63,990 bases of DNA, from positions 1 to 63,990 of the IMG/VR virus record IMGVR_UViG_3300042479_000819. The stretch is one strand, 5' to 3'. The first letter of the stretch is position 1. Every line of letters starts with the position of its first letter. Under the pieces are notes generated by a model. That model was not told where the DNA came from. It was given only the letters and a program-made list of their open reading frames with translations, and made no database searches. Position numbers and translations under genes: made by a program. The DNA is from a virus. Positions 39,099-55,856 of this stretch are shown here, in pieces.

Positions 39099-41606
39099 AT
39101 GAGTTTTAATTATAAAAATCCTAAATCATCAGTTGTACTATCTGGGCCAAATTCAGTTAGGACAGATTCAAATACCGGAAGCAATTTTAGTTCATTCCAA
39201 GTTGGTGGTTTTTACGAGGTTTTTAAATTAAGTGATTTAAATTTTAACATACCAAGTGGTGCAACAGGGACAATATTATATTCAGGAAATACCATTCCCA
39301 TTGATTTTAGTTATAATGCACCAAACAATTTTCCAAATGTAGTCAATTTATATTCAGATGGGATTTCTTCTGGAAGGAGAAAACTTGGTATGATTGCTTA
39401 TGTTTATGAGAATAATAAGACATATCAATACCAAATACCAAACTATGAAACATTATTTAATAATGCTATAAATGTTGGTTCTGTTGTAAATATTGATTTT
39501 GGTTATCAGATATATGATAATACAGATGAAGGTAAATTATTGTTAAATGCTTGGACAGGGTCAACCATTGAAGGCATAAGTGGAGTAACAAGAGGGGATG
39601 CAAGATGGGTTGAGTTCAATCCAGAGATTTATATCACAGGTGGAACATATAGTTCAGGAGATACCACATTATATTTATATGATAGTTCAGGGAATACAAT
39701 ACCAATATCAGGGTTTAGCATTAGTATTAGTGGGGGAACAACGGGGACATCTGGAACAAGTGGTACATCTGGTGGTTTAGCAGGAACATCTGGAACAAGT
39801 GGCTCATCTGGTGATCCATTAACTGAATTAGAAATAACAGGAGTTCAGAATAATTCTAATAGAACATTTACAATATCTGAATCTGTTGATATAAGTAATC
39901 ATTTATTTTTTTATAATGGGCAATTGCAACAATATGGTGTAGATTATACCATATTATCAGGCACAACTTTAGTAATTGATAATGCTAATCCGCCACCAAC
40001 ACCAAATTGTATATTAAAGATATATGGTAGTGTTGTTATTGGTTTTAATGGAACATCTGGAACATCTGGAACAAGTGGTTCAAGTGGTTCATCTGGAACA
40101 AGTGGTTCATCTGGTAATCCATTAACTGAATTAGAAATAACAGGAGTTCAGAATAATTCTAATAGAACATTTACAATATCTGAATCTGTTGATATAGGTA
40201 ATCATTTATTTTTTTATAATGGGCAATTGCAACAATATGATGTAGATTATACCATATTGTCAGGTACAACTTTAGTAATCAATAATGCTAATCCACCACC
40301 AACACCAAATTGTATATTAAAGATATATGGTGGTGTTGTTATTGGTGTTAATGGTACATCAGGTACAAGTGGGAGTAATGGAACATCTGGAACAAGTGGT
40401 TCATCTGGCAGTTCAGGAACATCAGGCACAGAGGGAACAAGTGGTTCATCTGGAAGCAGCGGAACATCAGGTATAGATGGGACAAGTGGTTCATCTGGAA
40501 GCAGCGGAACATCAGGTATAGATGGAACATCAGGCACGTCAGGAACAAGTGGTACGTCAGGTAGTAGTGGGTTACAAGGTATAAGTGCAGGTCAAGTTTA
40601 TTATTTCAATGAAAGCCAAAATTCAGATGTTAATGGGTATAAAGCCCTATCAATTACTCCACTTGACACACCACAACAAAGTGTTGTTATATTAGTTCCA
40701 GGTAATTCAACAGGGACATTAGTTTCAGATTATATAACGCCTGAATTAGGTTTTTCTGTAATACCAGGTGGGACACAAAAATTTCATTTACATTTCTTAA
40801 AAACAAATCAAAATGATTTGATGGATGTTTATGTTGAGATACAATTGGCTAATTTTAGTGGACAAACAATTGGACCAATAATAACATCAAATGTTAGTCT
40901 TATAAATTGGTTAGATGGGTCAACACCAGTTGAGGCAAATGTTGATATAACTTTACCAACAACAACAATCAATCCAACTAATAGGATGATTGTTAGAATA
41001 TATCTTAATAATCAACAAGGTTCATCAAAAAATGTTACATATTATACAGAAGGGAATAGTAATTATTCATTTGTTTTAACATCTACTGGTGCAATAGGAG
41101 GAACAAGTGGTATTTCAGGTTCTAGTGGCTCATCAGGGACAAGTGGTTCATCTGGGAGTAGCGGTACATCTGGAACAAGTGGTTCATCTGGAACAAGTGT
41201 AGCACTTTATTTACTTGAAGCATATGCAGACGTTGTTTATACTTTACCAGGTAGTTTTACTAATGATACTTGTAGATATAGTATTGTGAATAATAGTGTA
41301 AATGTATCAAGTGCATGGTTTAATACTTCAACTTATACCTTTACACCACTAAAAGCAGGTTATTGGGAAATTGCGGCTAGTTATGATGTCTATAGAAATG
41401 GAGAAGCTAATATGGGAATACAAAAAAATGGCAGTACTATAGGAATAGCGGGTTCAATATCTTCAATAATACAACAAGTAAGAAAAATTTTATATCTAAA
41501 TGGCTCAACTGACTATGTAAATATTATTAATAATGGTTCTAATGCAAATGCAAGAACACAAGAAGTAACTAGGTCTTGGTTTCAAGCAATATGGTTAGGA
41601 GAATAA
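39099..41606 (+). CDS. Tail fibre with collagen-like repeats and C1q-like tip
   Basis: An 835-residue fibre. Residues 1-214 form an N-terminal attachment domain. Gly-X-Y repeats of the GTSGSSG type lie at about 215-240, 315-340, 417-490 and 668-698. Two nearly identical 76-residue domains (about 239-315 and 340-416, with HLFFYNGQLQQYGVDYTI) sit between them, and a third copy is in the fibre at 41748. Residues about 490-665 form a further beta domain. The last 130 residues (TFTPLKAGYWEIAASYDVYR, then IQKNGSTIG) resemble C1q-type trimeric tips. A trimeric fibre is likely. Confidence 0.75.
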   Translation: MSFNYKNPKSSVVLSGPNSVRTDSNTGSNFSSFQVGGFYEVFKLSDLNFNIPSGATGTILYSGNTIPIDFSYNAPNNFPNVVNLYSDGISSGRRKLGMIAYVYENNKTYQYQIPNYETLFNNAINVGSVVNIDFGYQIYDNTDEGKLLLNAWTGSTIEGISGVTRGDARWVEFNPEIYITGGTYSSGDTTLYLYDSSGNTIPISGFSISISGGTTGTSGTSGTSGGLAGTSGTSGSSGDPLTELEITGVQNNSNRTFTISESVDISNHLFFYNGQLQQYGVDYTILSGTTLVIDNANPPPTPNCILKIYGSVVIGFNGTSGTSGTSGSSGSSGTSGSSGNPLTELEITGVQNNSNRTFTISESVDIGNHLFFYNGQLQQYDVDYTILSGTTLVINNANPPPTPNCILKIYGGVVIGVNGTSGTSGSNGTSGTSGSSGSSGTSGTEGTSGSSGSSGTSGIDGTSGSSGSSGTSGIDGTSGTSGTSGTSGSSGLQGISAGQVYYFNESQNSDVNGYKALSITPLDTPQQSVVILVPGNSTGTLVSDYITPELGFSVIPGGTQKFHLHFLKTNQNDLMDVYVEIQLANFSGQTIGPIITSNVSLINWLDGSTPVEANVDITLPTTTINPTNRMIVRIYLNNQQGSSKNVTYYTEGNSNYSFVLTSTGAIGGTSGISGSSGSSGTSGSSGSSGTSGTSGSSGTSVALYLLEAYADVVYTLPGSFTNDTCRYSIVNNSVNVSSAWFNTSTYTFTPLKAGYWEIAASYDVYRNGEANMGIQKNGSTIGIAGSISSIIQQVRKILYLNGSTDYVNIINNGSNANARTQEVTRSWFQAIWLGE
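39816..40043 (+). repeat. 228-base repeat, copy 1
   Basis: Encodes the first FYNGQLQQ domain. By eye it differs from copy 2 (40119-40346) at about eight positions, so the duplication is recent or kept alike by gene conversion. Confidence 0.9.
40119..40346 (+). repeat. 228-base repeat, copy 2
   Basis: Second copy of the domain-encoding unit, offset 303 bases from copy 1 and about 96% identical by eye. Confidence 0.9.
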
Positions 41607-41628
41607 TATTTAAAGATATAGAATACTA

Positions 41629-41676
41629 TTTTTTATAAAGTAAGTGTTTTAGTATATATGTTTTTTTTATAAAGTA
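41629..41676 (+). repeat. Direct repeat upstream of the large fibre gene
   Basis: TTTTTTATAAAGTA occurs at 41629-41642 and again at 41663-41676, in the gap before the fibre gene at 41748. Possible regulatory repeat. Confidence 0.5.
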
Positions 41677-41695
41677 TATAATAATTTTATATTTT

Positions 41696-41713
41696 AGGTT
41701 TTTTTTAAAACCT
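41696..41713. promoter_or_regulatory. Small hairpin upstream of the fibre gene
   Basis: AGGTTTT-TTTT-AAAACCT forms a seven-base-pair stem with a four-base loop, just before the TATTTATG element. It is not followed by a T tract, so its role is unclear. Confidence 0.35.
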
Positions 41714-41718
41714 TAAAG

Positions 41719-41726
41719 TATTTATG
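41719..41726 (+). promoter_or_regulatory. TATTTATG octamer before the large fibre gene
   Basis: TATTTATG ends 21 bases before the ATG at 41748; a one-base variant of the shared TATTTATA motif. Confidence 0.4.
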
Positions 41727-41747
41727 TATAAGTAAAAAAATAATAAT

Positions 41748-44700
41748 ATGCCAACTAGATTAAATATTTATGGTCAGGCCATTTCAACAACGAAGAAAAG
41801 GCCGTGTATTGTTGCAACAACAGGTCATATAGTACTATCTGGAGCAACAACACCAACATCAATTGATGGGATTAATATTGATGTTAATGATAGAATACTG
41901 GTGTGGCAACAAAATTCGCCACAAAATAATGGAATATACAAATTAGAAACATCAGAATTATTAAGCCGTGATTATGATTTTAATATCAGTGACGATGTTT
42001 ATACTGGTGTTGAGGTTTTGGTATTATCAGGATTAACATATTCTGGTAAAACATTTTATTTAACAACAACAGATGAGATAACAATTGGAAGTAGTTTATT
42101 AACATTTGATATTCTTGCTGGTCAAAATGGAACAAGCGGAAGTTCAGGAACAAGTGGTTCATCAGGAACAAGTGGCTCATCTGGAACAAGCGGAAGTTCA
42201 GGAACAAGTGGCTCATCTGGAACAAGTGGAAGTTCAGGAACAAGTGGCTCATCAGGAACAAGTGGAAGTTCAGGAACAAGTGGAAGTTCAGGAACAAGTG
42301 GTTCATCTGGAACAAGTGGCTCATCAGGAACAAGTGGAAGTTCAGGAACAAGTGGAAGTTCAGGTACAAGTGGTTCATCAGGTACAAGCGGAAGTTCAGG
42401 AACAAGTGGCTCATCAGGAACAAGTGGAAGTTCAGGAACAAGTGGAAGTTCAGGAACAAGTGGAAGTTCAGGTACAAGCGGAAGTTCAGGAACAAGTGGT
42501 TCATCAGGAACAAGTGGAAGTTCAGGAACAAGTGGAAGTTCAGGAACAAGTGGAAGTTCAGGAACAAGTGGTTCATCTGGAACAAGTGGAAGTTCAGGAA
42601 CAAGTGGTTCATCAGGTACAAGCGGAAGTTCAGGAACAAGTGGTTCATCTGGAACAAGCGGTTCATCTGGAACAAGCGGAAGTTCAGGTACAAGTGGAAG
42701 TTCTGGAACAAGTGGAAGTTCAGGTACAAGCGGAAGTTCAGGAACAAGTGGTTCATCTGGAACAAGCGGTTCATCTGGAACAAGCGGAAGTTCAGGTACA
42801 AGTGGAAGTTCTGGAACAAGTGGAAGTTCAGGAACAAGTGGTTCATCAGGTACAAGTGGCTCATCTGGAACAAGCGGTTCATCAGGTACAAGTGGTTCAT
42901 CTGGAACAAGCGGAAGTTCAGGAACAAGTGGAAGTTCAGGAACAAGTGGAAGTTCAGGAACAAGTGGAAGTTCAGGAACAAGTGGAAGTTCAGGAACAAG
43001 TGGCTCATCAGGTACAAGTGGCTCATCAGGTACAAGTGGCTCATCTGGAACAAGCGGAAGTTCAGGAACAAGTGGAAGTTCAGGAACAAGTGGAAGTTCA
43101 GGAACAAGTGGAAGTTCAGGAACAAGTGGCTCATCAGGTACAAGTGGCTCATCTGGAACAAGCGGAAGTTCAGGTACAAGTGGAAGTTCAGGAACAAGTG
43201 GAAGTTCAGGAACAAGTGGCTCATCAGGTACAAGCGGTTCATCAGGTACAAGCGGAAGTTCAGGAACAAGTGGCTCATCAGGAACAAGTGGCTCATCTGG
43301 AACAAGCGGAAGTTCAGGAACAAGCGGAAGTTCAGGTACAAGTGGAAGTTCAGGAACAAGTGGCTCATCTGGAACAAGTGGCTCATCTGGAACAAGCGGT
43401 TCATCAGGTACAAGTGGTTCATCTGGAACAAGCGGAAGTTCAGGAACAAGTGGTTCATCTGGAACAAGCGGAAGTTCAGGAACAAGTGGTTCATCTGGAA
43501 CAAGCGGAAGTTCAGGAACAAGTGGTTCATCTGGAACAAGTGGTACTGATGGAACAAGTGGCTCATCTGGAACAAGTGGCTCATCTGGAACAAGTGGCTC
43601 ATCTGGAACAAGCGGTTCATCAGGTACAAGCGGAAGTTCAGGAACAAGTGGTTCATCTGGAACAAGTGGTACTGATGGAACAAGTGGCTCATCTGGAACA
43701 AGTGGAAGTTCAGGAACAAGTGGCTCATCTGGAACAAGTGGCTCATCTGGAACAAGCGGTTCATCAGGTACAAGTGGTTCATCTGGAACAAGCGGAAGTT
43801 CAGGAACAAGTGGTTCATCTGGAACAAGTGGTACTGATGGAACAAGTGGCTCATCTGGAACAAGTGGAAGTTCAGGAACAAGTGGCTCATCTGGAACAAG
43901 CGGAAGTTCAGGAACAAGTGGAAGTTCAGGAACAAGTGGTTCATCTGGAACAAGCGGAAGTTCAGGTACAAGTGGAACAGCAGGAACAAGTGGAACAAGT
44001 CCATCAATAGTAGAATTATCTATTTCAGGTGCAACAAATGGGTCAAATAGAACATTTACCATTTCTCAAGAAATTGACCAAGAGGCTAGTTTATTCTTTG
44101 TTAATGGTCAATTACAACAATATGGTGATGATTATACCATTGCTGGAAATCAATTAACAATTGACTCAGAAAACCCAGCACCAACATCAACATACATATT
44201 AAAATTATTTGGCGGTGGTATTCTTTTTGGTATCAATGGAACAAGTGGAACATCAGCCTTTATTACCTCATCAGCATCAACACCATCACCAATAGATGCA
44301 AATTCAATGTGTTTTTGGTTTGACACAGTAAATTTAGAGCCAATGGTTTCTTATTGTGGGTATAGTGGAGCAGCTTCATGGTCAGCAGGGGGTGCATTGA
44401 TAACAGGAAACCAGCAATTTGCAGGAGCAGGAACACAGAATGAAGGACTTGTATTTGGAGGTACTGGTCCTGTATCTTGCACTGAAGAATATAATGGCAC
44501 ATCTTGGTCAACAGGTGGTGCATTAGCAACAGCAAGATGTGGTTTAGCAGGAGCAGGAACACAAAATGTAGGACTTGCTTTTGGTGGACATAGTTCATAT
44601 GGTTCTTGCACAGAAGAATATAATGGTACATCTTGGTCAGCAGGAGGTGCATTAGCAACAGCAAGACGATTTTTAGCAGGAGCAGGAACACAGAATGCAG

Positions 44701-45698
44701 CGCTTGCAGCAGGAGGTACTTATCCAATAACGTCTTGCACAGAAGAATACAATGGTACATCTTGGTCAGAAGGAGGTGCATTAGCAACAGCAAGATGTGG
44801 TTTAGCAGGAGCAGGATCACAGAATGCAGGACTTGCATTTGGAGGTAATGGTCCTTTATCTTGCACAGAAGAATATAATGGTACATCTTGGTCAGCAGGT
44901 GGTGTATTAATAGTTGCAAGAAGATTATTAGCAGGAGCAGGAACACAAAACGCAGGACTTGCATTTGGAGGAACTCCATCAGGATCTTGCACAGAAGAAT
45001 ACAATGGCACATTATGGTCAGCAGGAGGTGCACTGATAACAGGAAGACAAAATTTGGCTGGAGCAGGAATACAGAATGCAGCGCTTGCAGCAGGAGGTGG
45101 TTATGGATCATTAACTTGCACCGAAGAATACTCAGCACCAATAGTTTTGATTGATAGTTCAGGTACAGGAACACCAGGTGCAAGTGGAAGTTCAGGAACA
45201 AGTGGTGCAGCAGGAAGTAGTGGCACATCAGGTGCATCTGGAACAAGTGGTTCGTCTGGAACAAGTGGTTCTAATGCTGGAATAACATCATATACAAACC
45301 CAGTTGATAATAGGGTATTAACCTCAGTATCATCAACGTCAATAAATGCTGAAGCCAACTTAACTTTTGATGGTAGTGTTTTAACTGTTACAGGAACTAT
45401 AACAGAAACATCAACAGAAAAAGTAAAAGAAAATATAGAAGAAATTAGTAATCCTTTAGAGATTGTGAAAAAATTAAGAGGAGTAGAATATAACAAAATA
45501 GGTAATTCTATAAAAGAAATTGGTTTAATTGCAGAGGAAGTAGATAAAGTGCTACCACAAGTGGTAATAAAAGATTATGAAGGTAAACCAGCATCTGTCT
45601 CATATTCAAGAATAACAGCAATATTAATTGAAGCAATAAAAATACAGAATAAACAAATTGAAAATTTAACAAAAAGGATTGAAGTATTAGAAAAATAA
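41748..45698 (+). CDS. Long tail fibre: GTSGSS stalk, kelch domain, S74 chaperone
   Basis: A 1316-residue fibre. Order: N-terminal attachment domain (1-126); Gly-X-Y stalk of about 104 GTSGSS units (127-750); a 76-residue FVNGQLQQ domain shared with the fibre at 39099; six kelch-type repeats (about 877-1127, each like WSAGGALATAR ... GLAFGG ... CTEEYNGTS); a short second GSSGTSG stretch; and a C-terminal peptidase S74/endosialidase chaperone (about 1217-1316: STEKVKENIEEIS, LRGVEYNK, GLIAEEVDKVLP, coiled coil at the end). S74 domains trimerise fibres and cleave themselves off, so the mature fibre probably ends with the kelch and short stalk. Two-thirds of stalk residues are Ser or Thr, making it a candidate O-glycosylation target. 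Confidence 0.85.
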   Translation: MPTRLNIYGQAISTTKKRPCIVATTGHIVLSGATTPTSIDGINIDVNDRILVWQQNSPQNNGIYKLETSELLSRDYDFNISDDVYTGVEVLVLSGLTYSGKTFYLTTTDEITIGSSLLTFDILAGQNGTSGSSGTSGSSGTSGSSGTSGSSGTSGSSGTSGSSGTSGSSGTSGSSGTSGSSGTSGSSGTSGSSGTSGSSGTSGSSGTSGSSGTSGSSGTSGSSGTSGSSGTSGSSGTSGSSGTSGSSGTSGSSGTSGSSGTSGSSGTSGSSGTSGSSGTSGSSGTSGSSGTSGSSGTSGSSGTSGSSGTSGSSGTSGSSGTSGSSGTSGSSGTSGSSGTSGSSGTSGSSGTSGSSGTSGSSGTSGSSGTSGSSGTSGSSGTSGSSGTSGSSGTSGSSGTSGSSGTSGSSGTSGSSGTSGSSGTSGSSGTSGSSGTSGSSGTSGSSGTSGSSGTSGSSGTSGSSGTSGSSGTSGSSGTSGSSGTSGSSGTSGSSGTSGSSGTSGSSGTSGSSGTSGSSGTSGSSGTSGSSGTSGSSGTSGSSGTSGSSGTSGSSGTSGSSGTSGSSGTSGSSGTSGSSGTSGSSGTSGSSGTSGSSGTSGTDGTSGSSGTSGSSGTSGSSGTSGSSGTSGSSGTSGSSGTSGTDGTSGSSGTSGSSGTSGSSGTSGSSGTSGSSGTSGSSGTSGSSGTSGSSGTSGTDGTSGSSGTSGSSGTSGSSGTSGSSGTSGSSGTSGSSGTSGSSGTSGTAGTSGTSPSIVELSISGATNGSNRTFTISQEIDQEASLFFVNGQLQQYGDDYTIAGNQLTIDSENPAPTSTYILKLFGGGILFGINGTSGTSAFITSSASTPSPIDANSMCFWFDTVNLEPMVSYCGYSGAASWSAGGALITGNQQFAGAGTQNEGLVFGGTGPVSCTEEYNGTSWSTGGALATARCGLAGAGTQNVGLAFGGHSSYGSCTEEYNGTSWSAGGALATARRFLAGAGTQNAALAAGGTYPITSCTEEYNGTSWSEGGALATARCGLAGAGSQNAGLAFGGNGPLSCTEEYNGTSWSAGGVLIVARRLLAGAGTQNAGLAFGGTPSGSCTEEYNGTLWSAGGALITGRQNLAGAGIQNAALAAGGGYGSLTCTEEYSAPIVLIDSSGTGTPGASGSSGTSGAAGSSGTSGASGTSGSSGTSGSNAGITSYTNPVDNRVLTSVSSTSINAEANLTFDGSVLTVTGTITETSTEKVKENIEEISNPLEIVKKLRGVEYNKIGNSIKEIGLIAEEVDKVLPQVVIKDYEGKPASVSYSRITAILIEAIKIQNKQIENLTKRIEVLEK
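42129..44000 (+). repeat. About 104 tandem copies of an 18-base repeat
   Basis: Unit GGAACAAGTGGAAGTTCA, encoding GTSGSS, with synonymous variants of the Ser-Ser codons (AGTTCA, TCATCA, TCATCT) and of the Gly and second Ser codons. Three units carry GTD instead (43542, 43668 and 43830), spaced by exactly 7 and 9 units. A 6-unit (108-base) duplication marked by the rare AGTTCT variant is visible near 42701 and 42809. The array is expected to expand and contract by recombination. Confidence 0.95.
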
Positions 45699-45703
45699 TA
45701 CTA

Positions 45704-47855: not shown

Positions 47856-48490
47856 AAGCACAAGTATTTGCAATATTCCCAACACCTTTATATGTGGCAA
47901 ATTATGAGGGTGATTTAAAAGAGGTTATTGAATATTTTGATAGGAATGAAATGCAAGACACCAAAGCAGGGTATGGTATGATTTCAAACAATAGTTATAT
48001 ATTGGATAATCCAATATGTGATGAGGTGAATAAGTTTTTTATGGAATCCTTTAAAGATTTTGCAACAAATGTAATGAGATATAGATATGAGGATTTGCAA
48101 TTTGCACAATCCTGGTTGACATATAAAGCACCAAAACAATTCCATAAAGCACATACCCATCCAAACACCTTATTGGCTGGTGTTTTTTATTATGATGCAC
48201 AAGAGGATGATGCTGCCATTTGTTTTTCAAAAGATGTTAAATCATTTAATAGATCATACTTTGAGCCATCATTACTAGATGATTATCAAAATCATTCATT
48301 CTCACAAGAGGAGATATATTATAAACCAAAGAAAAATGATTTTTTAATATTCCCCTCTTGGTTAACACATGGTGTTCCACCAAACAATACAAATAGGGTG
48401 AGAAAAGCATTAGGTGTCAATGCTTTAACAAAAGGCACATTAGGTGATAAAGAAACCATTTCAGAAATTATATTTGGAAGATACAAATGA
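47852..48490 (+). CDS. 2OG-Fe(II) oxygenase-family protein (type 5), second copy
   Basis: Same family as its upstream neighbour but diverged: WLTYKAPKQFHKAHTHPNTL (His-rich first ligand site), LAGVFYYDAQEDDAAICFS, and FLIFPSWLTHGVPPNNTNRV with the distal His and Arg. 212 residues. It overlaps both neighbours by ATGA, so the three genes and the sulfotransferase are translated as a unit. Possibly acts on a related substrate or as a paired enzyme. Confidence 0.72.
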   Translation: MKAQVFAIFPTPLYVANYEGDLKEVIEYFDRNEMQDTKAGYGMISNNSYILDNPICDEVNKFFMESFKDFATNVMRYRYEDLQFAQSWLTYKAPKQFHKAHTHPNTLLAGVFYYDAQEDDAAICFSKDVKSFNRSYFEPSLLDDYQNHSFSQEEIYYKPKKNDFLIFPSWLTHGVPPNNTNRVRKALGVNALTKGTLGDKETISEIIFGRYK

Positions 48491-49305
48491 AACAAAAGAT
48501 ATTTTTTAATTCAACGTTACCAAGGAGTGGTAGCACTTTATTACAAAACATAATGGGACAAAATCCTGAATTTCATGTAACACCAACATCAGGTCTAATT
48601 GATTTGATGTTAGGAGCAAGAATAGGATACAATCAAAACCATGAATCAAAGGCTGGTGATACAGAAATGTGGAAAGAGGGTTTCTATAATTTCTGTAAAG
48701 AAGGTATAAAAGCATATGTTTCATCACAAACATCAAAACCATATTATTTGGATAAGAATAGGGTATGGGCGTTTTATTATAACCTATTATCAAATGTGGT
48801 AGAAAATCCAAAAGTAATATATATGGTTAGGGATTTACCATCCATATTTGCATCAATGGAGAAGAAGTTTAGAATGAATCCTGATAAAGATGATGGCACA
48901 ATGGATAATATCAAAATGAAAGGGACAACAACACATAAGAGAGTTGAACTATGGGCGCAAACAGTTCCTGTAGGTTATTCATTGGAAAAATTACAACAAA
49001 CATTATTGGATGGTACAGCAAAGAACTTTCTATTCATTAAATATGAAGACCTATGCAGTAATCCAGAAATGGTGATGAGAAACATTTATAAATATTTAGA
49101 AGTAGATGATTTCAAACATAATTTTCAACATATAAGTCAAGTCACAGTAGAAAATGATGCAATACATGGGATATATGGTGATCATATTATAAGGAATAGT
49201 TTGAATATGTTACCAAATGATTCAAAAAATGTGCTAGGTCAATATACAGTTGATTCCATAAAGACATCCTATAAGTGGTACAATGATTTCTTTGGGTATA
49301 AATAA
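48487..49305 (+). CDS. Sulfotransferase
   Basis: A 272-residue PAPS-dependent sulfotransferase, transferring sulfate to a hydroxyl of a sugar, protein or small molecule. The 5'-phosphosulfate loop is FNSTLPRSGSTLLQNIM at residues about 6-22. The 3'-phosphate-binding region is VIYMVRDLPSIFASM (about 111-125), and a later KNFLFIKYEDLCSNPE (about 177-192) is also typical. No membrane anchor, so it acts in the cytoplasm. ATGA-coupled to the oxygenases and followed by kelch adhesin genes. Fibre or host-glycan sulfation is only a hypothesis. Confidence 0.85.
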   Translation: MKQKIFFNSTLPRSGSTLLQNIMGQNPEFHVTPTSGLIDLMLGARIGYNQNHESKAGDTEMWKEGFYNFCKEGIKAYVSSQTSKPYYLDKNRVWAFYYNLLSNVVENPKVIYMVRDLPSIFASMEKKFRMNPDKDDGTMDNIKMKGTTTHKRVELWAQTVPVGYSLEKLQQTLLDGTAKNFLFIKYEDLCSNPEMVMRNIYKYLEVDDFKHNFQHISQVTVENDAIHGIYGDHIIRNSLNMLPNDSKNVLGQYTVDSIKTSYKWYNDFFGYK

Positions 49306-49318
49306 AGTTAGGAGATGA

Positions 49319-49326: not shown

Positions 49327-49339
49327 ATAAAAAAAGAAT

Positions 49340-49386
49340 ATGGCAAAATTACAAAGTACAGAAATAATAGGAGTTGCAAATAGACC
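49340..49386 (+). repeat. 47-base leader repeat, copy 1
   Basis: The first 47 bases of the gene are identical to those at 50292 and 51241, giving a perfect direct repeat at each paralogue start. Confidence 0.9.
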
Positions 49387-50290
49387 TGCAACAATATGTT
49401 CAAATACGATGTGCATTTGGTTTGATACAGTTAATTTAAAACCAGTCATTTCATATTGTGGATATAGTCCTCCTTGGTCAGTAGGTGGCGCAATGATAAC
49501 AGCAAGATGTGGTTTAGCAGGAGCAGGAACGCAAGATGCAGGTCTTGTGTTTGGAGGCTTTGCTAGTTTTTCTCCAAAATCTTGTACAGAAGAATACGAT
49601 GGTGCATCTTGGTCAGCAGGTGGTGCATTATCAATAGCAAGACTTGGTTTAGCAGGAGCAGGAACACAGAATGAAGGACTTGCTTTTGGGGGAGGCGCTA
49701 GTTATTCTCCAATATCTTGTACAGAAGAATATAATGGCACATCGTGGTCATCAGGCGGTGCATTGATAGAAGCAAGGAGTTCTTTAGCAGGAGTAGGAAC
49801 ACAAAATGCAGGACTTGCATTAGGAGGTTATGCTAGTTATTCTCCATCATCTTGCACAGAAGAATATGATGGTACAACTTGGGCAACAGGAGGTGCATTG
49901 ATAGAAGCAAGGAGTTCTTTAGCAGGAGCAGGAACACAGAATGCAGGACTTGCTTTTGGAGGAACTCCATCAGGATCTTGCACAGAAGAATACAATGGTA
50001 CATCTTGGTCAGCAGGAGGTGCGTTGATAACAGCAAAATGTGGCTTAGCAGGAGCAGGAACACAGAATGCAGGACTTGCTTTTGGTGGTAACTCTTTTGC
50101 TGTGCCTGATACACAAGAATATAACGGCAGTTCTTGGGTGGCAGGCGGCAAATTATTATCAGTGAGATGTTCTTTAGCAGGAGCAGGGACGCAAAGTGCA
50201 GGACTTGCTATGGGTGGGTATAATGGTTCATGTGTTTCTTGTACAGAAGAATACATTAAAACAATCGCAATAATAGATTCAATACGATAA
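49340..50290 (+). CDS. Kelch-type beta-propeller adhesin, paralogue 1
   Basis: A 316-residue protein with a 40-residue leader (MAKLQSTEIIGVANRP, then CIWFDTVNLKPVISYCGY), six kelch-type repeats of 43-46 residues (WSAGGALSIARLGLAGAGTQ ... FGG ... SCTEEYNGTS) and the end KTIAIIDSIR. Such repeats make beta propellers or beta prisms that bind ligands on their loops. The leader and repeats match the kelch domain of the fibre at 41748. Loop lengths differ between repeats and paralogues, as expected for receptor binding. No S74 chaperone, no signal peptide. Presumed detachable or alternative fibre tip. Confidence 0.75.
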   Translation: MAKLQSTEIIGVANRPATICSNTMCIWFDTVNLKPVISYCGYSPPWSVGGAMITARCGLAGAGTQDAGLVFGGFASFSPKSCTEEYDGASWSAGGALSIARLGLAGAGTQNEGLAFGGGASYSPISCTEEYNGTSWSSGGALIEARSSLAGVGTQNAGLALGGYASYSPSSCTEEYDGTTWATGGALIEARSSLAGAGTQNAGLAFGGTPSGSCTEEYNGTSWSAGGALITAKCGLAGAGTQNAGLAFGGNSFAVPDTQEYNGSSWVAGGKLLSVRCSLAGAGTQSAGLAMGGYNGSCVSCTEEYIKTIAIIDSIR

Positions 50291-50291
50291 T

Positions 50292-50338
50292 ATGGCAAAA
50301 TTACAAAGTACAGAAATAATAGGAGTTGCAAATAGACC
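50292..50338 (+). repeat. 47-base leader repeat, copy 2
   Basis: Identical to 49340-49386. The match to copy 3 continues for about 50 further bases with only a few mismatches, and includes bases upstream of the ATG. Confidence 0.9.
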
Positions 50339-51239
50339 AGCAGTAATATGCGCTGATACTGTATGTTTATGGTTTAATACAACAATTAAACAGTTAGTTT
50401 TCTCATATTCCGGTTTTTCAGGATCCTGGTCGGCAGGGAATGCATTGATAACAGCAAGAGGTTATTTAGCAGGAGCAGGGACGCAGAATGCAGGACTTGC
50501 TATAGGCGGGTATAATGGTAGTATTCTTTCTTGCACGGAAGAATACGATGGTACATCATGGTCAGCAGGCGGAGCATTATCAATAGCAAGATATCGGTTA
50601 GGAGGAGCAGGGACACAGAGTGTAGGACTTGTGTTTGGAGGCCGTAATCCGGGCGCTCTTTCTTGTACAGAAGAATACGATGGGACATCTTGGTTAGCAG
50701 GCGGAGCATTGATAATAGCGAGGTTTGGACCAGCAAGTGCAGGTACACAGGACGCAGGACTTGCATTTGGAGGTTTTGTAAATAATAGTAGTACCTGCAC
50801 TGAAGAGTACAATGGTACATCTTGGTCAACAGGTGGCGCATTGATTAGTTCAAGACATAATTTAGCAGGAGCAGGAACACAGAATGCAGGACTTGCTTTT
50901 GGGGGAACATTTCCAAATGGTGATTGCACTGAAGAATACAACGGCACAACTTGGTTAACAGGTGGTGCATTGATAATAGGAAGAGAAGGTACAGGGACAG
51001 GAACACAGAATGAAGGACTTTTTATAGGAGGCATAGTAACAAATACTGGTGTTTCTTGTACAGAAGAATATGATGGCGCATCTTGGTCAGTAGGTGGGGC
51101 AATGATAGTAGCAAGGCACACACTAGCAGGTGCAGGAACACAAAGCGCAGGACTTGCTATAGGTGGGTATATGAATAATGGAGTTTCTTGTACAGAAGAG
51201 TACACTAAAACAATAACAATAGTAGATTCAATACGATAA
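50292..51239 (+). CDS. Kelch-type beta-propeller adhesin, paralogue 2
   Basis: 315 residues, one base after paralogue 1. Same leader, six kelch repeats and C-terminal KTITIVDSIR. The fifth repeat is shortened (GREGTGTGTQNEGLFIGG). The loop between FGG and CTEEY varies most (for example NNSST, FPNGD, NTGVS), which is where a ligand-binding face would lie. Tandem duplication with paralogues 1 and 3 is evident. Confidence 0.75.
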   Translation: MAKLQSTEIIGVANRPAVICADTVCLWFNTTIKQLVFSYSGFSGSWSAGNALITARGYLAGAGTQNAGLAIGGYNGSILSCTEEYDGTSWSAGGALSIARYRLGGAGTQSVGLVFGGRNPGALSCTEEYDGTSWLAGGALIIARFGPASAGTQDAGLAFGGFVNNSSTCTEEYNGTSWSTGGALISSRHNLAGAGTQNAGLAFGGTFPNGDCTEEYNGTTWLTGGALIIGREGTGTGTQNEGLFIGGIVTNTGVSCTEEYDGASWSVGGAMIVARHTLAGAGTQSAGLAIGGYMNNGVSCTEEYTKTITIVDSIR

Positions 51240-51240
51240 T

Positions 51241-51287
51241 ATGGCAAAATTACAAAGTACAGAAATAATAGGAGTTGCAAATAGACC
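51241..51287 (+). repeat. 47-base leader repeat, copy 3
   Basis: Identical to the copies at 49340 and 50292. Homologous recombination between copies would delete or fuse whole adhesin genes in frame. Confidence 0.9.
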
Positions 51288-52185
51288 AGCAGTAATATGC
51301 ACTGATACTGTATGTTTATGGTTTGATACAACAAATTTGAAATCAATGGCATCATATTGCACTTTTTTAGGATCCTGGTCTGCAGGAGGTGCATTGATAA
51401 CAGCAAGACTTGGTTTAGCAGGAGCAGGAACACAGAATGAAGGACTTGCTTTTGGAGGATATTGTAATGAAGGTTTATCATGTACAGAAGAATATAATGG
51501 CACAAGTTGGTCAGCAGGGGGTGCATTAATAACAGCAAGACATTTTTTAGCAGGAGCAGGAACAGAAAACGCAGGACTTGCTTTTGGTGGTAGTTATTCA
51601 GGTTCATGTACCGAAGAATATAATGGTACGGCTTGGTCAGCAGGGGGTGCATTGATAGAAGCAAGGAGTTCTTTAGCAGGAGTAGGAACACAGAATGCAG
51701 GACTTGCTATGGGGGGCGGTGGTTATTCTCCAATATCTTGTACAGAAGAATATGATGGTATATCGTGGTCATCAGGCGGTGCATTGATAGAAGCAAGGAG
51801 TTCTTTAGCAGGAGTAGGAACACAAAATGCAGGACTTGCATTAGGAGGTGGTGGTTATGGACCAACATCTTATACAGAAGAATACAATGGCACAACTTGG
51901 ACAACAGGAGGTGCATTGATAGAAGGAAGGGGTTCTTTAGCAGGAGCAGGCTCACAGAATGCAGGACTTGCTTTTGGTGGTGCTGCTAGTTATTCTCCAA
52001 AATCTTGTACAGAAGAATATAATGGCACATCTTGGTCATCACGCGGAGCATTATTAATAGCAAGGTGTTCTTTAGCAGGAGCAGGAACACAAAGCGTAGG
52101 GCTTGCTTTTGGAGGAACTCCATCAGGATCTTGTACAGAAGAATATGATGGAGATATTTTAATAATAAGAGACATTATTTTATAA
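51241..52185 (+). CDS. Kelch-type beta-propeller adhesin, paralogue 3
   Basis: 314 residues, one base after paralogue 2, with the same leader and six kelch repeats. Its C-terminus differs (EEYDGDILIIRDIIL), so it has lost the shared DSIR ending. Two repeats are almost the same as repeats in paralogue 1 (IEARSSLAGVGTQNAGLA), suggesting exchange between copies. It is the last of the tandem set before the glycosyltransferase genes. Confidence 0.75.
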   Translation: MAKLQSTEIIGVANRPAVICTDTVCLWFDTTNLKSMASYCTFLGSWSAGGALITARLGLAGAGTQNEGLAFGGYCNEGLSCTEEYNGTSWSAGGALITARHFLAGAGTENAGLAFGGSYSGSCTEEYNGTAWSAGGALIEARSSLAGVGTQNAGLAMGGGGYSPISCTEEYDGISWSSGGALIEARSSLAGVGTQNAGLALGGGGYGPTSYTEEYNGTTWTTGGALIEGRGSLAGAGSQNAGLAFGGAASYSPKSCTEEYNGTSWSSRGALLIARCSLAGAGTQSVGLAFGGTPSGSCTEEYDGDILIIRDIIL

Positions 52186-52256
52186 ATGTTTTAAAAATCA
52201 TCATACACAATAGTAGATTGCGTCTTATAATTATAAAACCTATAAATAAAAAATTA

Positions 52257-53144
52257 ATGGATTTAACAACAGAAAAAATTTTAGTATGGCACATTCAAGG
52301 TGGATTAGGAAAGAATGTTGCAGCTACATCATTACCAAAGACAATAAAAGAAATTTATCCAGATAGACAACTTATAATGGTTGTATCATATCCTGAAGTT
52401 TTTCTAAATAATCCTTATGTTGATAGGGTGTATCCATTAGGTAATTGCCCCTACTTTTACCAGGATTTTGTAGAGAACAAGGATACTCTTGTTTTTAGAC
52501 ATGAGCCGTATCATCAAACGGGTCATATACATAAGGAGAAGCATCTGGTAAGTAACTGGTGTGATTTGCTTAATATAGAGTATAGCAATCAGATACCCCA
52601 ACTTTTCCCAAATTACGCAGAGAAGGTTAATGCAAAGAAATGGTTTAGGGATAAACCAGTGGTGGTATTACAAACATCTGGTGGTGATTTAGAATCAAAG
52701 AATATATATTCTTGGTGTAGGGATATGCCACAAGATATTGCACAATTGATTGTTGACAAGTACAAGGACAGCCACCATATATTCCATATAACAAGGAAAG
52801 GTGGTTATGTTTTGAATGATACAGAGAGGCTTGATGTTAAGTTATCTAATATGGAGTTGTTTAGTATATTGACAGTTTCGTCCAAGAGATTTTTAATAGA
52901 TTCTTCTTTGCAACATGCGGCAGTTGCTATTAATTTGCGGTCAACTGTGTTTTGGATTGGAACATCACCCAAGGTTTTTGGGTATGACTTGCACAATAAT
53001 ATTGTTGCAAATCAGCCCAAAAACAAGAACCAATTAATTGGTTCATACTTGTTTGACTATCAGTTTGATTTTAATGTACATGAGTGTCCGTATAGCACAT
53101 TGGATGAAATGTTTGATATGGATTTTGTTATATCAAATATTTAA
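52257..53144 (+). CDS. GT9-like glycosyltransferase (heptosyltransferase fold)
   Basis: A 295-residue GT-B enzyme resembling ADP-heptose/LPS heptosyltransferases. N-terminal VWHIQGGLGKNVAATSLPKT (residues about 9-28), SYPEVFLNNPYVDRVYPLG, a middle VVVLQTSGGDLE, and the C-terminal sugar-nucleotide region FLIDSSLQHAAVAINL with TVFWIGTSP are typical. The ATG at 52257 is preferred; a TTG at 52218 would add 13 residues. Its 3' end overlaps the convergent gene by 12 bases, and its terminator lies inside that gene. Donor sugar and acceptor are unknown; it may work with the neighbouring O-heptosyltransferase. Confidence 0.72.
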   Translation: MDLTTEKILVWHIQGGLGKNVAATSLPKTIKEIYPDRQLIMVVSYPEVFLNNPYVDRVYPLGNCPYFYQDFVENKDTLVFRHEPYHQTGHIHKEKHLVSNWCDLLNIEYSNQIPQLFPNYAEKVNAKKWFRDKPVVVLQTSGGDLESKNIYSWCRDMPQDIAQLIVDKYKDSHHIFHITRKGGYVLNDTERLDVKLSNMELFSILTVSSKRFLIDSSLQHAAVAINLRSTVFWIGTSPKVFGYDLHNNIVANQPKNKNQLIGSYLFDYQFDFNVHECPYSTLDEMFDMDFVISNI

Positions 53145-55856
53145 ATTTGTATGCTGTTTCAAATTAAGTATAACATCTTCGGGTGTTATACTTTTTTGGC
53201 ATTCGTGTTGTCTGGATGTTCCTTTATGTATTGGGCACCAGTTCCAATCTCCTTTATCAAATTTGAAGTTTGGGTTTGTCCAACAAGAGTTGCATACATT
53301 ATGATTATATATTCTTGTTGTATTTGTTGTGAATTCATGATTTAAATCAGTGAAATTGTTAATCATAACCACATGTTTATTAATTGCCCAACTTAACCAA
53401 CTCAAGCCACTTCCCAGACCAATGAATATTTCAGAATGGTGAATATAATTCATAATGTTATTTATGTCATAATTGTTTGGAGTTATGGCATTTTTGATAT
53501 TATTTCCTTCTTTTGAAATGTTTATAACGGTATATCCTTTGCTATTTAAAAATTCTGTTAGTTCATCCCATCCATTTGGGTATAGCCAGAATTTTAAGGC
53601 TGATGTGGAGTGGGTTGCAATTGTTATGTATTTTTCTTTTATGGGTCTTTTCTTTGGTATGAAATCAATGGTTGGTTTTATTTCGGTATAATCTAGGCCA
53701 AGGATATTTGTTGCTGTCATTTGTAATGGTATTATATTTGGTAATATTGGTTCCATTTGATTATTATAGAACCAACCAAGGGTATATTTTGCATGTATAT
53801 TTTGGGCAACTTGACCAGGTATAATGAACTCAATGTTTGGATATGTTTTTTCAAAGAAGTTATTCCAGAAGGTTGATGCAACAACCTTGCAATTATGTTT
53901 TTTTGAGAATTCATCAATGTAAGGCATCCATGCAACGGAATCACCAAGAGATTTTGAATCAATGGCAATATAAACCCTTTTATTGGTTAAATCCATATTA
54001 AAGACATGTTTCCCTTTTTGGTTGCTAACAGTGATTTCCCAATCAACAAAATATTTTATGGATGATTTTGTCCAATTGTTTCTCCCAATATTTGATTTGT
54101 ATTCAATTTTGTTTGTTTTTTTATTTTTGAATGTAATATCATATCTTATGTTTGGACCACCAGTTATTTCAACAAATGGACCATCAATAAAATTAATATT
54201 AATATTTGGTTCAATATCAGTTGTTTTTAATTCATATATGTCAAAACTTGAAAATTGGTTATGAACACCTTCCAAGTCTGTTGTTACTTTATCAGTTAAG
54301 CATTTTTCAACAACATTAAACTTATAATCTTTGATTAAATCATACATTTTTTCCTCAAACTTCTTGAAGTTGATATAAAATATTAATTTTGTTTTGTAAT
54401 AGTTAAATAACTCCAATAATGGGGTTATGTTGCCAGAAAAGAAATTGGTTTTATATCCATCATTTTTATCTATGTTATTATTGTAATATAAAATTAAATC
54501 CTTTGAATTAAGCTGTTTATAATTATCATTTAATGTGTCAGAATATATTAATGTATCATAATTTACAATATGTATTTTCTTTTTGTTTAATTTATCTGCA
54601 AAGTTGACACCCTGCTTTATTAAGTTATAAACTCCAAAACTATGTTCAAAAGGCATTGAAGTACTTGTTTTTTCCCCTTTTGCATTTATCTTCCAATATT
54701 CAAATATAACATTATGTTCTTCATATTCATCTTTATCCAATAATTGATTATCTTTTGAATATAATACATAATCACATAATGATTGGGTTTCTTCATCAAC
54801 TGGTTTATTGCATGATAATATGATTTCTGTATTGATGGTTGACAAACATCTTTTTAGCATATTTTTTCTAAATAAGTTATTTGTGTGAGCCAATACAATG
54901 GTTACTTCATCTTCATTTCTTTTTTTATCTTCATTCAATAGATTGATTAATAATTTCTTATTCTCTTCTGGGTTATCTGTGGAATATACTGCCTTATTAT
55001 CATAATAATTTTCATATGTATGTAAGTTTTTTGTTATAATTTTAAGACCAAAGGATGATGCTTCTTTTAATGATAAGGGATTCAATTCATATATTGATGG
55101 GAAATAGAATAAATCAGACGCTTCATAATAATTCAATGGGTTTTCTTGTTCCCCGTGTATAACGCAATTCTTTGGTAAATCATCCAATATTGGTTTCCAA
55201 TATTCATAGAAGTTTCCAGCCATATTTCCAACAAAATGAAATATTATTTTCTCATCTTGGCACAATCTAGCGACTTCAATTATTTCCTTTTGGTTTTTAC
55301 CTTGTGTAAATAATCCAACATGTAGGACATGTTTATAAGAGGGGTCAAATCCAAGGAGTTCTTGTTTTTGCTTTTTCTTTGGTATTTTCTTTGGAATGTG
55401 GTATTCCCATATGGTTAATGGAACTCCTGTTTTTACAAATTGCTTCTTGCTCCATTCTGATACTAAGATATATTTATCTGGATGAAATTTTATATCATTT
55501 GGATTTGTCCATGATCCATGTGTGGTGACAAATATCTTATAACCTTGGTCACGTTGAAATATCTTGAAAAGGATATCATCTGACAAATTGAATTCAGGTA
55601 CTTCTTGAAAATGAATAATGTCAGGACTAATGTTATTTATGTGTGTTAATATTTCAGATTTATCATCCCCAAGTGTAATAACATTTACAAGTTCTTTAAT
55701 CTTATTCTTTTGTACAACATAATCACCGCTTACATTTGCTATTTCAATGACATAAATATTATATACAGGAAGAAATTCTTCAATTTGTTTGAGAAGATAT
55801 TGCGGTAAACCCCCAGTTGATAAATGCGGTGTTACAAATAATAATTTTTCTTTCAT
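53133..55856 (-). CDS. Glycosyltransferase fusion: GT4-like plus TibC/Aah-type O-heptosyltransferase
   Basis: A 907-residue cytoplasmic enzyme of at least three parts. Residues 1-320: GT-B glycosyltransferase of GT4 type (FVTPHLSTGGLPQYLLKQI; HVGLFTQGKNQKEIIE; an E-x7-E signature in YELNPLSLKEASSFG). Residues about 330-540: an unassigned glycosyltransferase-like region. Residues about 553-907: a close match to bacterial autotransporter O-heptosyltransferases, which attach heptose to Ser of adhesin repeats: INFIDGPFVEITGG, RVYIAIDSKSLGDSVAWMPY, ASTFWNNFFEKTYPNIEF, FIGLGSGLSWLSWAINKHVV, and four Cys (VCNSCW, NWCPIH, HECQKS) that bind iron in TibC. It is opposite in strand to all neighbours. Confidence 0.82.
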   Translation of the reverse strand: MKEKLLFVTPHLSTGGLPQYLLKQIEEFLPVYNIYVIEIANVSGDYVVQKNKIKELVNVITLGDDKSEILTHINNISPDIIHFQEVPEFNLSDDILFKIFQRDQGYKIFVTTHGSWTNPNDIKFHPDKYILVSEWSKKQFVKTGVPLTIWEYHIPKKIPKKKQKQELLGFDPSYKHVLHVGLFTQGKNQKEIIEVARLCQDEKIIFHFVGNMAGNFYEYWKPILDDLPKNCVIHGEQENPLNYYEASDLFYFPSIYELNPLSLKEASSFGLKIITKNLHTYENYYDNKAVYSTDNPEENKKLLINLLNEDKKRNEDEVTIVLAHTNNLFRKNMLKRCLSTINTEIILSCNKPVDEETQSLCDYVLYSKDNQLLDKDEYEEHNVIFEYWKINAKGEKTSTSMPFEHSFGVYNLIKQGVNFADKLNKKKIHIVNYDTLIYSDTLNDNYKQLNSKDLILYYNNNIDKNDGYKTNFFSGNITPLLELFNYYKTKLIFYINFKKFEEKMYDLIKDYKFNVVEKCLTDKVTTDLEGVHNQFSSFDIYELKTTDIEPNININFIDGPFVEITGGPNIRYDITFKNKKTNKIEYKSNIGRNNWTKSSIKYFVDWEITVSNQKGKHVFNMDLTNKRVYIAIDSKSLGDSVAWMPYIDEFSKKHNCKVVASTFWNNFFEKTYPNIEFIIPGQVAQNIHAKYTLGWFYNNQMEPILPNIIPLQMTATNILGLDYTEIKPTIDFIPKKRPIKEKYITIATHSTSALKFWLYPNGWDELTEFLNSKGYTVINISKEGNNIKNAITPNNYDINNIMNYIHHSEIFIGLGSGLSWLSWAINKHVVMINNFTDLNHEFTTNTTRIYNHNVCNSCWTNPNFKFDKGDWNWCPIHKGTSRQHECQKSITPEDVILNLKQHTNLNI
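53166..53197 (+). terminator. UUCG-tetraloop terminator inside the antisense gene
   Basis: A 12-base-pair stem AAGTATAACATC / GGTGTTATACTT (with a T-G pair) closed by a C(TTCG)G loop and followed by six T. It begins 21 bases after the stop of the GT9-like gene and lies within the 3' coding part of the minus-strand gene. There is no T tract on the other strand, so it acts only on + strand transcription. Confidence 0.88.

What the first reader, a model, noticed from the sequence alone, without database searches (positions are those of the whole stretch)
39099..55856. Candidate phage system for decorating its own Ser/Thr-rich fibre
Seen: a fibre whose 620-residue stalk is two-thirds Ser/Thr (GTSGSS repeats), then three oxygenase-like genes, a sulfotransferase, three kelch tips, a GT9-like glycosyltransferase and a large TibC/Aah-type O-heptosyltransferase fusion, all within 17 kb. 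Known: TibC/Aah enzymes glycosylate Ser in repeats of autotransporter adhesins. Inference: the stalk is the acceptor, giving a mucin-like, possibly sulfated phage fibre. Alternatively the enzymes alter host surface glycans to block superinfection.
Basis: partly seen in the sequence, partly recalled or inferred. Interest (0 to 1): 0.88.

Follow-up and report, generated by a model that had tools for sequence, protein, structure and literature searches.

The report
Phage enzyme paired with sugar-ready fibre
Many uncultured phages carry a protein-sugar enzyme near a tail fibre whose long stalk is almost pure glycine, serine and threonine, and related phages with a different stalk lack the enzyme, so these phages probably coat their own fibres with sugar.

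Summary
The parts are real. The main fibre (41748-45698) has a 627-residue, 66% Ser/Thr stalk. The minus-strand gene 53133-55856 fuses a GT4 domain to a TibC/Aah-family O-heptosyltransferase (TIGR04414, 283 bits, cut-off 200) that keeps TibC's catalytic residues and four iron-finger cysteines. The 308-aa protein has a GT9 fold.

I ran the co-occurrence test. TibC-type enzymes track Ser/Thr-rich stalks: 6 of 15 versus 0 of 105 records in a composition-blind Gly-X-Y sample, and 21 of 44 in a Ser/Thr-pattern sample of records of 30 kb or more. In loci sharing the sulfotransferase/GT9 genes, Gln/Asn-rich stalks come without TibC and with other glycosyltransferases. The closest cellular relatives lie near lipoprotein-like proteins with the same repeats; 70 other bacterial loci do not.

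So the stalk is the likeliest acceptor (0.72). The oxygenase/sulfotransferase/repeat-tip/GT9 cassette persists without TibC or a Ser/Thr stalk, so sulfation or hydroxylation of the stalk is unsupported. Against it: about half of the Ser/Thr-stalk records lack TibC, and a few TibC records show no stalk. Donor sugar is inferred. New variant of a known kind (virion glycosylation).

The parts
39099..41606 (+). fibre ORF 1 (835 aa) with short GTS/GSS Gly-X-Y stretches
   Evidence: Pfam Collagen 4.6e-16; stretches listed
41748..45698 (+). main fibre (1316 aa): head, stalk, tip region similar to the downstream repeat ORFs, C-terminal S74 domain; proposed acceptor
   Evidence: Pfam Collagen 1.2e-89, Peptidase_S74 2.5e-10; matched by the 49340 repeat protein in phmmer (in L484)
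42120..44000 (+). stalk: 209 Gly-X-Y triplets, 105 GTS + 99 GSS
53133..55856 (-). GT4 + TibC/Aah-type O-heptosyltransferase fusion (907 aa); proposed fibre glycosyltransferase
   Evidence: TIGR04414 283.3 bits; PF00534; TibC 4rap TMt 0.82 over the C-terminal domain; D639, K755, C855, C858, C874, C886 invariant in 20 aligned sequences
52218..53144 (+). GT9-fold protein (308 aa), overlaps the TibC gene tail-to-tail; cassette gene, role in any stalk glycan uncertain
   Evidence: AlphaFold pLDDT 71; 3tov Z 16.0; homologue in L025 hits PF01075 23.9 bits, cut-off 22
48487..49305 (+). sulfotransferase of the neighbouring cassette
   Evidence: PF13469 3.8e-19; kept in loci without TibC
46665..47249 (+). 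2OG-Fe(II) oxygenase, neighbouring cassette
   Evidence: PF13640 2.8e-10
47253..47855 (+). 2OG-Fe(II) oxygenase, neighbouring cassette
   Evidence: PF13759 1.2e-23
47852..48490 (+). 2OG-Fe(II) oxygenase, neighbouring cassette
   Evidence: PF13759 6.5e-19
49340..52185 (+). three repeat proteins (49340-50290, 50292-51239, 51241-52185), alike and kelch-like by eye only; the first resembles the tip region of the main fibre
   Evidence: phrog_27227 1.8e-46 and no Pfam hit for the first, the only one scanned

Best explanation
The minus-strand fusion is a soluble protein O-glycosyltransferase that the phage makes to decorate its own main tail fibre. The TibC-type domain adds a sugar, most likely a heptose from an ADP-heptose, to Ser/Thr hydroxyls in the Gly-Thr-Ser/Gly-Ser-Ser repeats in the cytoplasm before virion assembly, and the fused GT4 domain extends it. 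In a Gly-X-Y helix the X and Y side chains point outwards, and this stalk has no proline, so the sugars may also stiffen or stabilise the stalk and shield it. Shown here: gene identities, conserved catalytic and metal-binding residues, stalk/enzyme co-variation. Inferred: that the stalk is the acceptor, the donor sugar, the order of the two domains, the helix, and the benefit. The oxygenase/sulfotransferase/repeat-tip/GT9 cassette beside it is a separate module whose target is open.
For: (2) Separate Ser/Thr-codon sample: 21 of 44 records of 30 kb or more, 20 over the cut-off, against 0 of 41 non-Ser/Thr Gly-X-Y records of that size (5e-8). (3) Among 46 representative phage TibC loci 27 show a Ser/Thr Gly-X-Y gene in the fetched flank; in 24 of 27 the nearest lies on the opposite strand, 3' of the enzyme gene, within 1 kb in 14 of 27. 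(4) Gly-X-Y stretches of 12 or more triplets near TibC: X/Y 86% Ser/Thr, 0.2% Pro; in the 105 non-Ser/Thr loci 25% and 12.5%. (5) In loci sharing the sulfotransferase/GT9 genes, stalks rich in GTQ/GNQ/GAQ have no TibC in the record, and other glycosyltransferases follow the GT9 gene where read; Ser/Thr stalks have TibC: 8 of 10 vs 0 of 8 after merging near-duplicates by eye (p 0.001). (6) Bacteria: 6 of the 8 closest cellular hits have Gly-[Ser/Thr] repeats within the fetched flank, in L405 the same GTSGSS hexapeptide in a lipoprotein-like protein; 0 of 70 other loci (split by rank made after seeing the data; Fisher 1e-7). The enzyme tree puts 40 of the 42 bacterial sequences without such repeats on one side (SH-aLRT 100) and the phage and repeat-linked bacterial ones on the other. 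(7) TibC's D110, K230 and Cys 339/342/358/370 (PMC4358343, passages read) align with D639, K755, C855/858/874/886. (8) In L075 three genes beside the fusion have HldD, HldE kinase and HldE adenylyltransferase models as best hits.
Against: No biochemistry or virion proteomics. Ser/Thr stalks without TibC are common: 23 of 44 records, 24 of 30 further ones, and 8 of 9 in the window's DnaB lineage; in three of the four of those examined the fibre gene runs off the contig at its 3' end, where the enzyme often lies, but in G219 the fibre is intact and TibC absent. TibC without the stalk: 8 of 35 TibC records of 30 kb or more lack the strict pattern (one, L056, has the stalk by translation), and the records of L519, L543, L577 and L579 match TIGR04414 (L543, L577, L579 below the cut-off) with no Gly-X-Y in the fetched flank; further regions of L519, L543 and L579 showed none either. 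L519 keeps a 174-aa stub of the window's first fibre, possibly a collapsed repeat. In sample (1) L149 is a partial match (129 bits), and if each locus is classed by its longest stretch the counts are 5 of 12 vs 1 of 108 (p 2.4e-5). 4 of 117 Ser/Thr-pattern loci are not in-frame Ser/Thr Gly-X-Y. In the swap, L497/L501 have TibC only below the cut-off (167.6 bits) and elsewhere in the record, L553 (no TibC) was merged with L548/L549, and L520 and L562 are about half Ser/Thr without TibC. Of three INPHARED TibC records W01 and W03 lack the strict pattern, though W01 has the stalk by translation. In the window 7.4 kb separates the enzyme and fibre genes. ADP-heptose supply is not significantly enriched: TIGR02199 in 7 of 30 TibC records vs 1 of 20 controls, all below cut-off (p 0.12); L075's hits are below the equivalog cut-offs. 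Records are related and partial, so p-values overstate independence.
Confidence: 0.72

Rival explanations
1. The enzymes remodel host surface glycans (LPS, capsule) to block superinfection, and lie beside fibre genes only because fibre regions collect cargo genes.
For: Phage glycosyltransferases are explained this way elsewhere (PMC7029224, passages read). GT9 and GT4 enzymes include LPS enzymes; a CMP-Kdo-synthetase-like gene lies beside the divergent TibC in L583.
Against: It does not predict dependence on stalk composition among Gly-X-Y fibres, the stalk/enzyme co-variation or the bacterial pairing with GTSGSS-type repeats. TibC and AAH are protein glycosyltransferases (PMC4358343).
Confidence: 0.13
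2. The TibC fusion glycosylates another virion protein (tip repeats, TP-rich or SprB-repeat proteins) and merely travels with Ser/Thr stalks.
For: In the window the enzyme lies between the repeat-tip ORFs and TP-rich/SprB-type structural genes; some TibC records lack the stalk pattern.
Against: Tip-repeat homologues occur in loci without TibC; the feature shared by phages and the closest bacterial loci is the Gly-Ser/Thr repeat.
Confidence: 0.1
3. The whole 17-kb set is one pathway: oxygenases hydroxylate, GT9/GT4/TibC build and the sulfotransferase sulfates a mucin-like stalk.
For: Besides the window group and L009, five TibC loci carry the sulfotransferase and GT9 homologues (L025, L045, L066, L075, L079, clusters 11 and 12), all five with an APS-kinase-like gene (cluster 26; two scanned).
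Against: The same cassette occurs with Gln/Asn-rich stalks and no TibC, or with no Gly-X-Y gene in the fetched flank; most TibC loci lack it. APS kinase in 7 of 30 TibC records vs 1 of 20 controls is weak.
Confidence: 0.15

Closest known systems
TibC/Aah bacterial autotransporter heptosyltransferases (BAHT, TIGR04414)
   Same: Domain, fold, catalytic Asp/Lys and iron-finger cysteines; repeat protein as proposed acceptor
   Different: Fused to GT4; phage-encoded; proposed acceptor is a Gly-Thr-Ser/Gly-Ser-Ser fibre stalk, not an autotransporter; on a separate side of the tree from most bacterial relatives
Mimivirus L230 lysyl hydroxylase-glucosyltransferase acting on viral collagen (PMC9614988, passages read)
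   Same: Virus-encoded enzyme modifying a Gly-X-Y virus protein
   Different: L230 glucosylates hydroxylysine; here Ser/Thr, a TibC-type enzyme, phages
Mycobacteriophage virion glycosylation (Freeman 2023; seen only as cited in PMC12619734; the paper itself is not held)
   Same: Phages with glycans on their own virion proteins
   Different: Reported there on capsid and tail-tube C-termini; neither TibC-type enzymes nor repeat stalks are named in the passage read
Glycosylated collagen-like BclA of the Bacillus anthracis exosporium, and Thr glycosylation as a collagen stabiliser (Bann 2000), both seen only as cited in PMC3368898
   Same: O-glycans on a Gly-X-Y stalk; proposed stabilising role
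   Different: Spore protein; other enzymes and sugars (recalled)

Membership tests
BAHT (TibC/Aah) O-heptosyltransferase | TIGR04414 above its cut-off | tested here: met
   283.3 bits vs 200
BAHT (TibC/Aah) O-heptosyltransferase | catalytic Asp (TibC D110) and Lys-230 | tested here: met
   D639 and K755 aligned, invariant in 20 rows; roles from PMC4358343
BAHT (TibC/Aah) O-heptosyltransferase | four-cysteine iron finger C-x2-C-x15-C-x11-C | tested here: met
   C855, C858, C874, C886; same spacing as Cys 339/342/358/370
BAHT (TibC/Aah) O-heptosyltransferase | TibC fold | tested here: met
   Foldseek 4rap TMt 0.82; model pLDDT 85 or more in most of that domain, 63-72 in the iron-finger stretch
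BAHT (TibC/Aah) O-heptosyltransferase | autotransporter acceptor encoded nearby | tested here: inconclusive
   no autotransporter model hit among the window ORFs scanned; not every ORF was scanned
BAHT (TibC/Aah) O-heptosyltransferase | dodecameric ring, ADP-heptose use | not testable with these tools
   needs biochemistry
Collagen-like (Gly-X-Y) phage fibre | long Gly-X-Y repeat | tested here: met
   209 triplets, PF01391 1.2e-89
Collagen-like (Gly-X-Y) phage fibre | proline in X/Y positions (usual, not strictly defining) | tested here: not met
   no Pro in the stalk; 0.2% near TibC genes vs 12.5% in non-Ser/Thr viral Gly-X-Y
Collagen-like (Gly-X-Y) phage fibre | forms a triple helix | not testable with these tools
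   needs CD or structure; the C-terminal S74 domain is recalled as typical of trimeric fibres
GT9 (52218-53144) | GT9 heptosyltransferase fold | tested here: met
   Z 16.0 to 3tov, rmsd 4.1 over 259 residues
GT9 (52218-53144) | PF01075 above cut-off in the window protein | tested here: not met
   no hit; homologue in L025 23.9 bits vs 22. I therefore call it GT9-fold only

The most novel reading that the evidence does not exclude
Phage tail-fibre stalks and their glycosyltransferases are exchanged as matched cassettes: Ser/Thr Gly-X-Y stalk with GT4-TibC fusion, Gln/Asn Gly-X-Y stalk with a GT2 set, at the same site. The virion surface glycan would then vary like a serotype, with sugars replacing (hydroxy)proline as the stabiliser of proline-free Gly-X-Y stalks, and a branch of the TibC family, shared with bacteria, would be dedicated to Gly-Ser/Thr repeats.
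Probability: 0.35. Interest if true: 0.9.

Novelty: new variant of a known kind. Interest (0 to 1): 0.8.

Why it matters
If true, a large set of uncultured phages builds O-glycoprotein tail fibres with a dedicated enzyme of their own, which bears on adsorption, fibre stability and host range. It would give a second viral route to glycosylated Gly-X-Y stalks beside mimivirus L230, a new acceptor class for TibC-family enzymes, and a small enzyme/repeat pair (also in bacteria) usable for making defined O-glycosylated repeats. A directly testable phage is named: Microcystis phage Mel-JY01.

Tried and rejected
Sulfation and hydroxylation as part of the same pathway: set aside, because the cassette is kept without TibC and with other stalks. 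PF11397 (GlcNAc-type) glycosyltransferase as the general substitute in Ser/Thr-stalk records without TibC: 4 of 30 vs 1 of 20 controls, not convincing; one intact case, G219, has it next to the fibre. ADP-heptose and PAPS supply genes as a general marker: 7 of 30 vs 1 of 20 each, suggestive only. TibC as a hitchhiker of the window's lineage: set aside, since only 1 of 20 DnaB relatives of 30 kb or more has it (that record, of L205, is also the one of L008, whose fusion is 100% identical), while phages with enzymes about half identical to it have it. DNA slippage alone as the origin of the repeat: disfavoured by codon differences. The 634-, 646- and 673-aa frames overlapping the stalk are read as artefacts of the repeat. 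Kelch fold of the tips: no Pfam support for the one scanned. I did not test which acceptors lie beside the 70 bacterial loci without Gly-Ser/Thr repeats.

One search took 50 of the 56 loci (L003-L005, L052, L053 and L081 left out). L034 was left out of the domain profile (18% identity to the window's domain, taken as misaligned; script). 15 bacterial loci gave no domain by my ORF caller and are not in the tree, though they are in the 78-locus repeat count; 117 rows were thinned to 94 before the tree, a quick LG+G4 tree with long-branch warnings (L401, L404, L408, L400). Of the 120 ST-pattern loci, whole-record TIGR04414 was looked up for 44 (every listed new one of 30 kb or more), 30 (shorter or unlisted), and 3 shared with the first sample (L116 and L152 negative, L171 positive). 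In one search L518 shares a record with L495, so 49 records were searched for 50 handles.

Literature: no paper about TibC-family enzymes in phages or about glycosylated phage Gly-X-Y fibres appeared among the listed titles and abstract starts (open-licence PMC only); one search found no paper naming Mel-JY01.
Full report
WHAT IS THERE. The window is a 64-kb linear virus record of IMG/VR, 25-46% G+C in 2-kb steps, with no tRNA found. It encodes phage replication and baseplate-wedge proteins and, in the structural region, SprB repeats and Fib_succ_major domains, which I recall as typical of Bacteroidota; the host is otherwise unknown. In 39099-55856 lie two Gly-X-Y fibres, three 2OG-Fe(II) oxygenases, a sulfotransferase, three repeat proteins, a GT9-fold protein and, on the minus strand, a 907-aa fusion. 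The main fibre has a 627-residue stalk of 209 Gly-X-Y triplets (105 GTS, 99 GSS; 65.7% Ser/Thr; no Pro) and an S74 domain at its end. Between consecutive hexapeptide units codons differ synonymously 239 times and non-synonymously 16 times, against 28% synonymous for random single-base changes, so the peptide rather than the DNA repeat seems conserved.

THE ENZYME. Residues 547-900 of the fusion match TIGR04414 (hepto_Aah_TibC) at 283 bits, cut-off 200, and the TibC crystal structures at 2.2e-45 and 3.1e-45. D110, K230 and the iron-finger cysteines 339/342/358/370 of TibC (eLife 2014, PMC4358343, passages read) correspond to D639, K755 and C855/C858/C874/C886, invariant in 20 aligned sequences. 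AlphaFold puts the C-terminal domain on TibC (TMt 0.82) and the N-terminal domain on GT4 enzymes (BshA, TMt 0.59). The 308-aa neighbour, without any family hit, models as GT9 (3tov Z 16.0, WaaC 14.7, WaaF 14.2).

DOES IT TRACK THE STALK? A scan of viral contigs with the fusion found 173 relatives, of which 80 were kept. Gly-X-Y stretches of 12 or more triplets near them are 86% Ser/Thr and 0.2% Pro in X/Y, against 25% and 12.5% in non-Ser/Thr viral Gly-X-Y loci. To avoid choosing by composition I sampled 120 loci with 15 glycine codons in Gly-X-Y register and searched their whole records for TIGR04414: 6 of 15 with a stretch of at least 60% Ser/Thr are positive (one, L149, a partial match of 129 bits), 0 of 105 others. 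Classed by the longest stretch the counts are 5 of 12 and 1 of 108. A second sample chosen by a Ser/Thr codon pattern (113 of 117 new loci confirmed as in-frame Ser/Thr Gly-X-Y) gave 21 of 44 records of 30 kb or more, against 0 of 41 non-Ser/Thr Gly-X-Y records of that size; 30 further, shorter or unlisted records gave 6. Conversely, 29 of 50 TibC records, and 27 of 35 of 30 kb or more, match the strict Ser/Thr pattern. In 46 representative phage loci a Ser/Thr Gly-X-Y gene is in the fetched flank in 27, and in 24 of these the nearest is on the opposite strand 3' of the enzyme gene, within 1 kb in 14 of the 27 and within 100 bp in 5. In annotated phage records 4 of 50,697 matched the fusion. 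Two of these four have the same length and match coordinates and I followed one, so three were examined: Mel-JY01 has a 149-triplet Ser/Thr stretch in an ORF 1.7 kb from its TibC gene, on the same strand, but no strict-pattern match; LR756501 (735 kb) matches the strict pattern 712 times; LR756504 does not.

A NATURAL SWAP. Scans with the sulfotransferase and the GT9 protein fetched loci that share the window's order f80-p226-oxygenases-sulfotransferase-repeat proteins-GT9. In L490-L495 and L510 the stalks are rich in GTQ, GNQ, GAQ, GIQ, GFQ and the like (13-28% Ser/Thr) and TIGR04414 is absent from the record. In those printed (L490, L491, L494, L495) the place after GT9 holds other genes, in L495 a 305-aa protein without Pfam hit, a DUF6445 protein and two GT2 enzymes. 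In the window group and L496 the stalk is Ser/Thr-rich and TibC follows GT9. L497 and L501 (about half Ser/Thr) carry a divergent TibC elsewhere in the record (167.6 bits, under the cut-off). Over the loci of these two scans with 12 or more triplets, near-duplicates merged by eye (TibC-negative L553 with L548/L549), TibC is in 8 of 10 with about half or more Ser/Thr (L520 and L562 negative) and in 0 of 8 others (p 0.001). This separates the 17 kb into two modules: stalk plus TibC, and a cassette that depends on neither.

A CASE IN CELLS. Of 78 bacterial loci with TibC relatives, Ser/Thr-rich Gly-X-Y repeats lie in the fetched flank of 6, all among the 8 closest to the phage enzymes and titled as Gammaproteobacteria or orders that I place there (L402, L403, L405, L406, L407, L409), and in none of the other 70. 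In L403, L405, L407 and L409 the repeat is in a short protein with a lipoprotein-like start, in L405 literally (GTSGSS)n. A DUF6502 gene lies beside the enzyme in L405. In the tree, 40 bacterial sequences without such repeats form one side (SH-aLRT 100); the other side holds the 46 phage sequences, the six repeat-linked bacterial ones, L404 (a phage-like contig by eye) and L408 (quick method, long branches flagged).

PATHWAY HINTS. In L075, genes whose best models are heptose epimerase (168 bits), HldE kinase (138) and HldE adenylyltransferase (92), all below the equivalog cut-offs, lie beside the fusion, with an APS-kinase-like gene, the sulfotransferase and the GT9 homologue. APS-kinase-like genes accompany the sulfotransferase in L025, L045, L066, L075 and L079 (cluster 26). 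At record level neither supply family is clearly enriched.

WHAT SPEAKS AGAINST. Many Ser/Thr stalks have no TibC (23 of 44; 24 of 30; 8 of 9 in the window's DnaB lineage). In G228, G229 and G230 the fibre gene runs off the contig at its 3' end, so the absence says little; in G219 the fibre is complete, TibC is absent and a PF11397 enzyme adjoins. TibC also occurs without a visible stalk: L519 has only a 174-aa fibre stub, and no Gly-X-Y was found in the regions read around L543, L577 and L579, whose TIGR04414 matches are below the cut-off. Related and fragmentary records make the p-values optimistic.

VERDICT. Heptose as the sugar follows from family knowledge; sulfation and hydroxylation of the stalk are not supported. 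Virion glycosylation in phages is known (cited in PMC12619734) and so is viral collagen glycosylation (mimivirus L230, PMC9614988). The TibC-family enzyme, the proline-free Ser/Thr Gly-X-Y acceptor and the stalk/enzyme co-variation did not appear in the listings.

Noticed in passing
L399 (PP395634) 2-3052 +: Microcystis phage Mel-JY01: the Ser/Thr Gly-X-Y fibre reads as a + strand frame of 1016 aa from the record start, but the record annotates minus-strand CDS over it (1-651 and 739-2298).
   Followed up: partly
window 49340-52185 and 41748-45698: The repeat proteins resemble the tip region of the main fibre itself, so they may be alternative tips; related loci carry varying numbers of such hits.
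   Followed up: partly
L495 14631-18984: Alternative gene set (305-aa unknown, DUF6445, two GT2) after GT9 where the stalk is Gln/Asn-rich; possible second stalk/enzyme pair.
   Followed up: partly
L030 11740-12111 and 10 other loci: A ~124-aa gene recurs in 11 phage TibC loci, often directly after the enzyme gene; the one scanned (L030) is DUF6165.
   Followed up: no
L403, L405, L407, L409: Gammaproteobacterial TibC-like gene near a lipoprotein-like protein with GTSGSS/GSSG repeats, with a DUF6502 gene in L405 and look-alikes by eye in the others: a possible cellular glycolipoprotein system.
   Followed up: partly
LR756501 (735 kb phage): 712 matches of the strict Gly-Thr-Ser pattern in one genome, an extreme amount of this repeat.
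   Followed up: no
window 34813-37011, 59022-60077, 28399-29304, 57888-59018: SprB repeats (first two) and Fib_succ_major domains (last two) in window proteins, pointing to a Bacteroidota host (the link to Bacteroidota is recalled).
   Followed up: no
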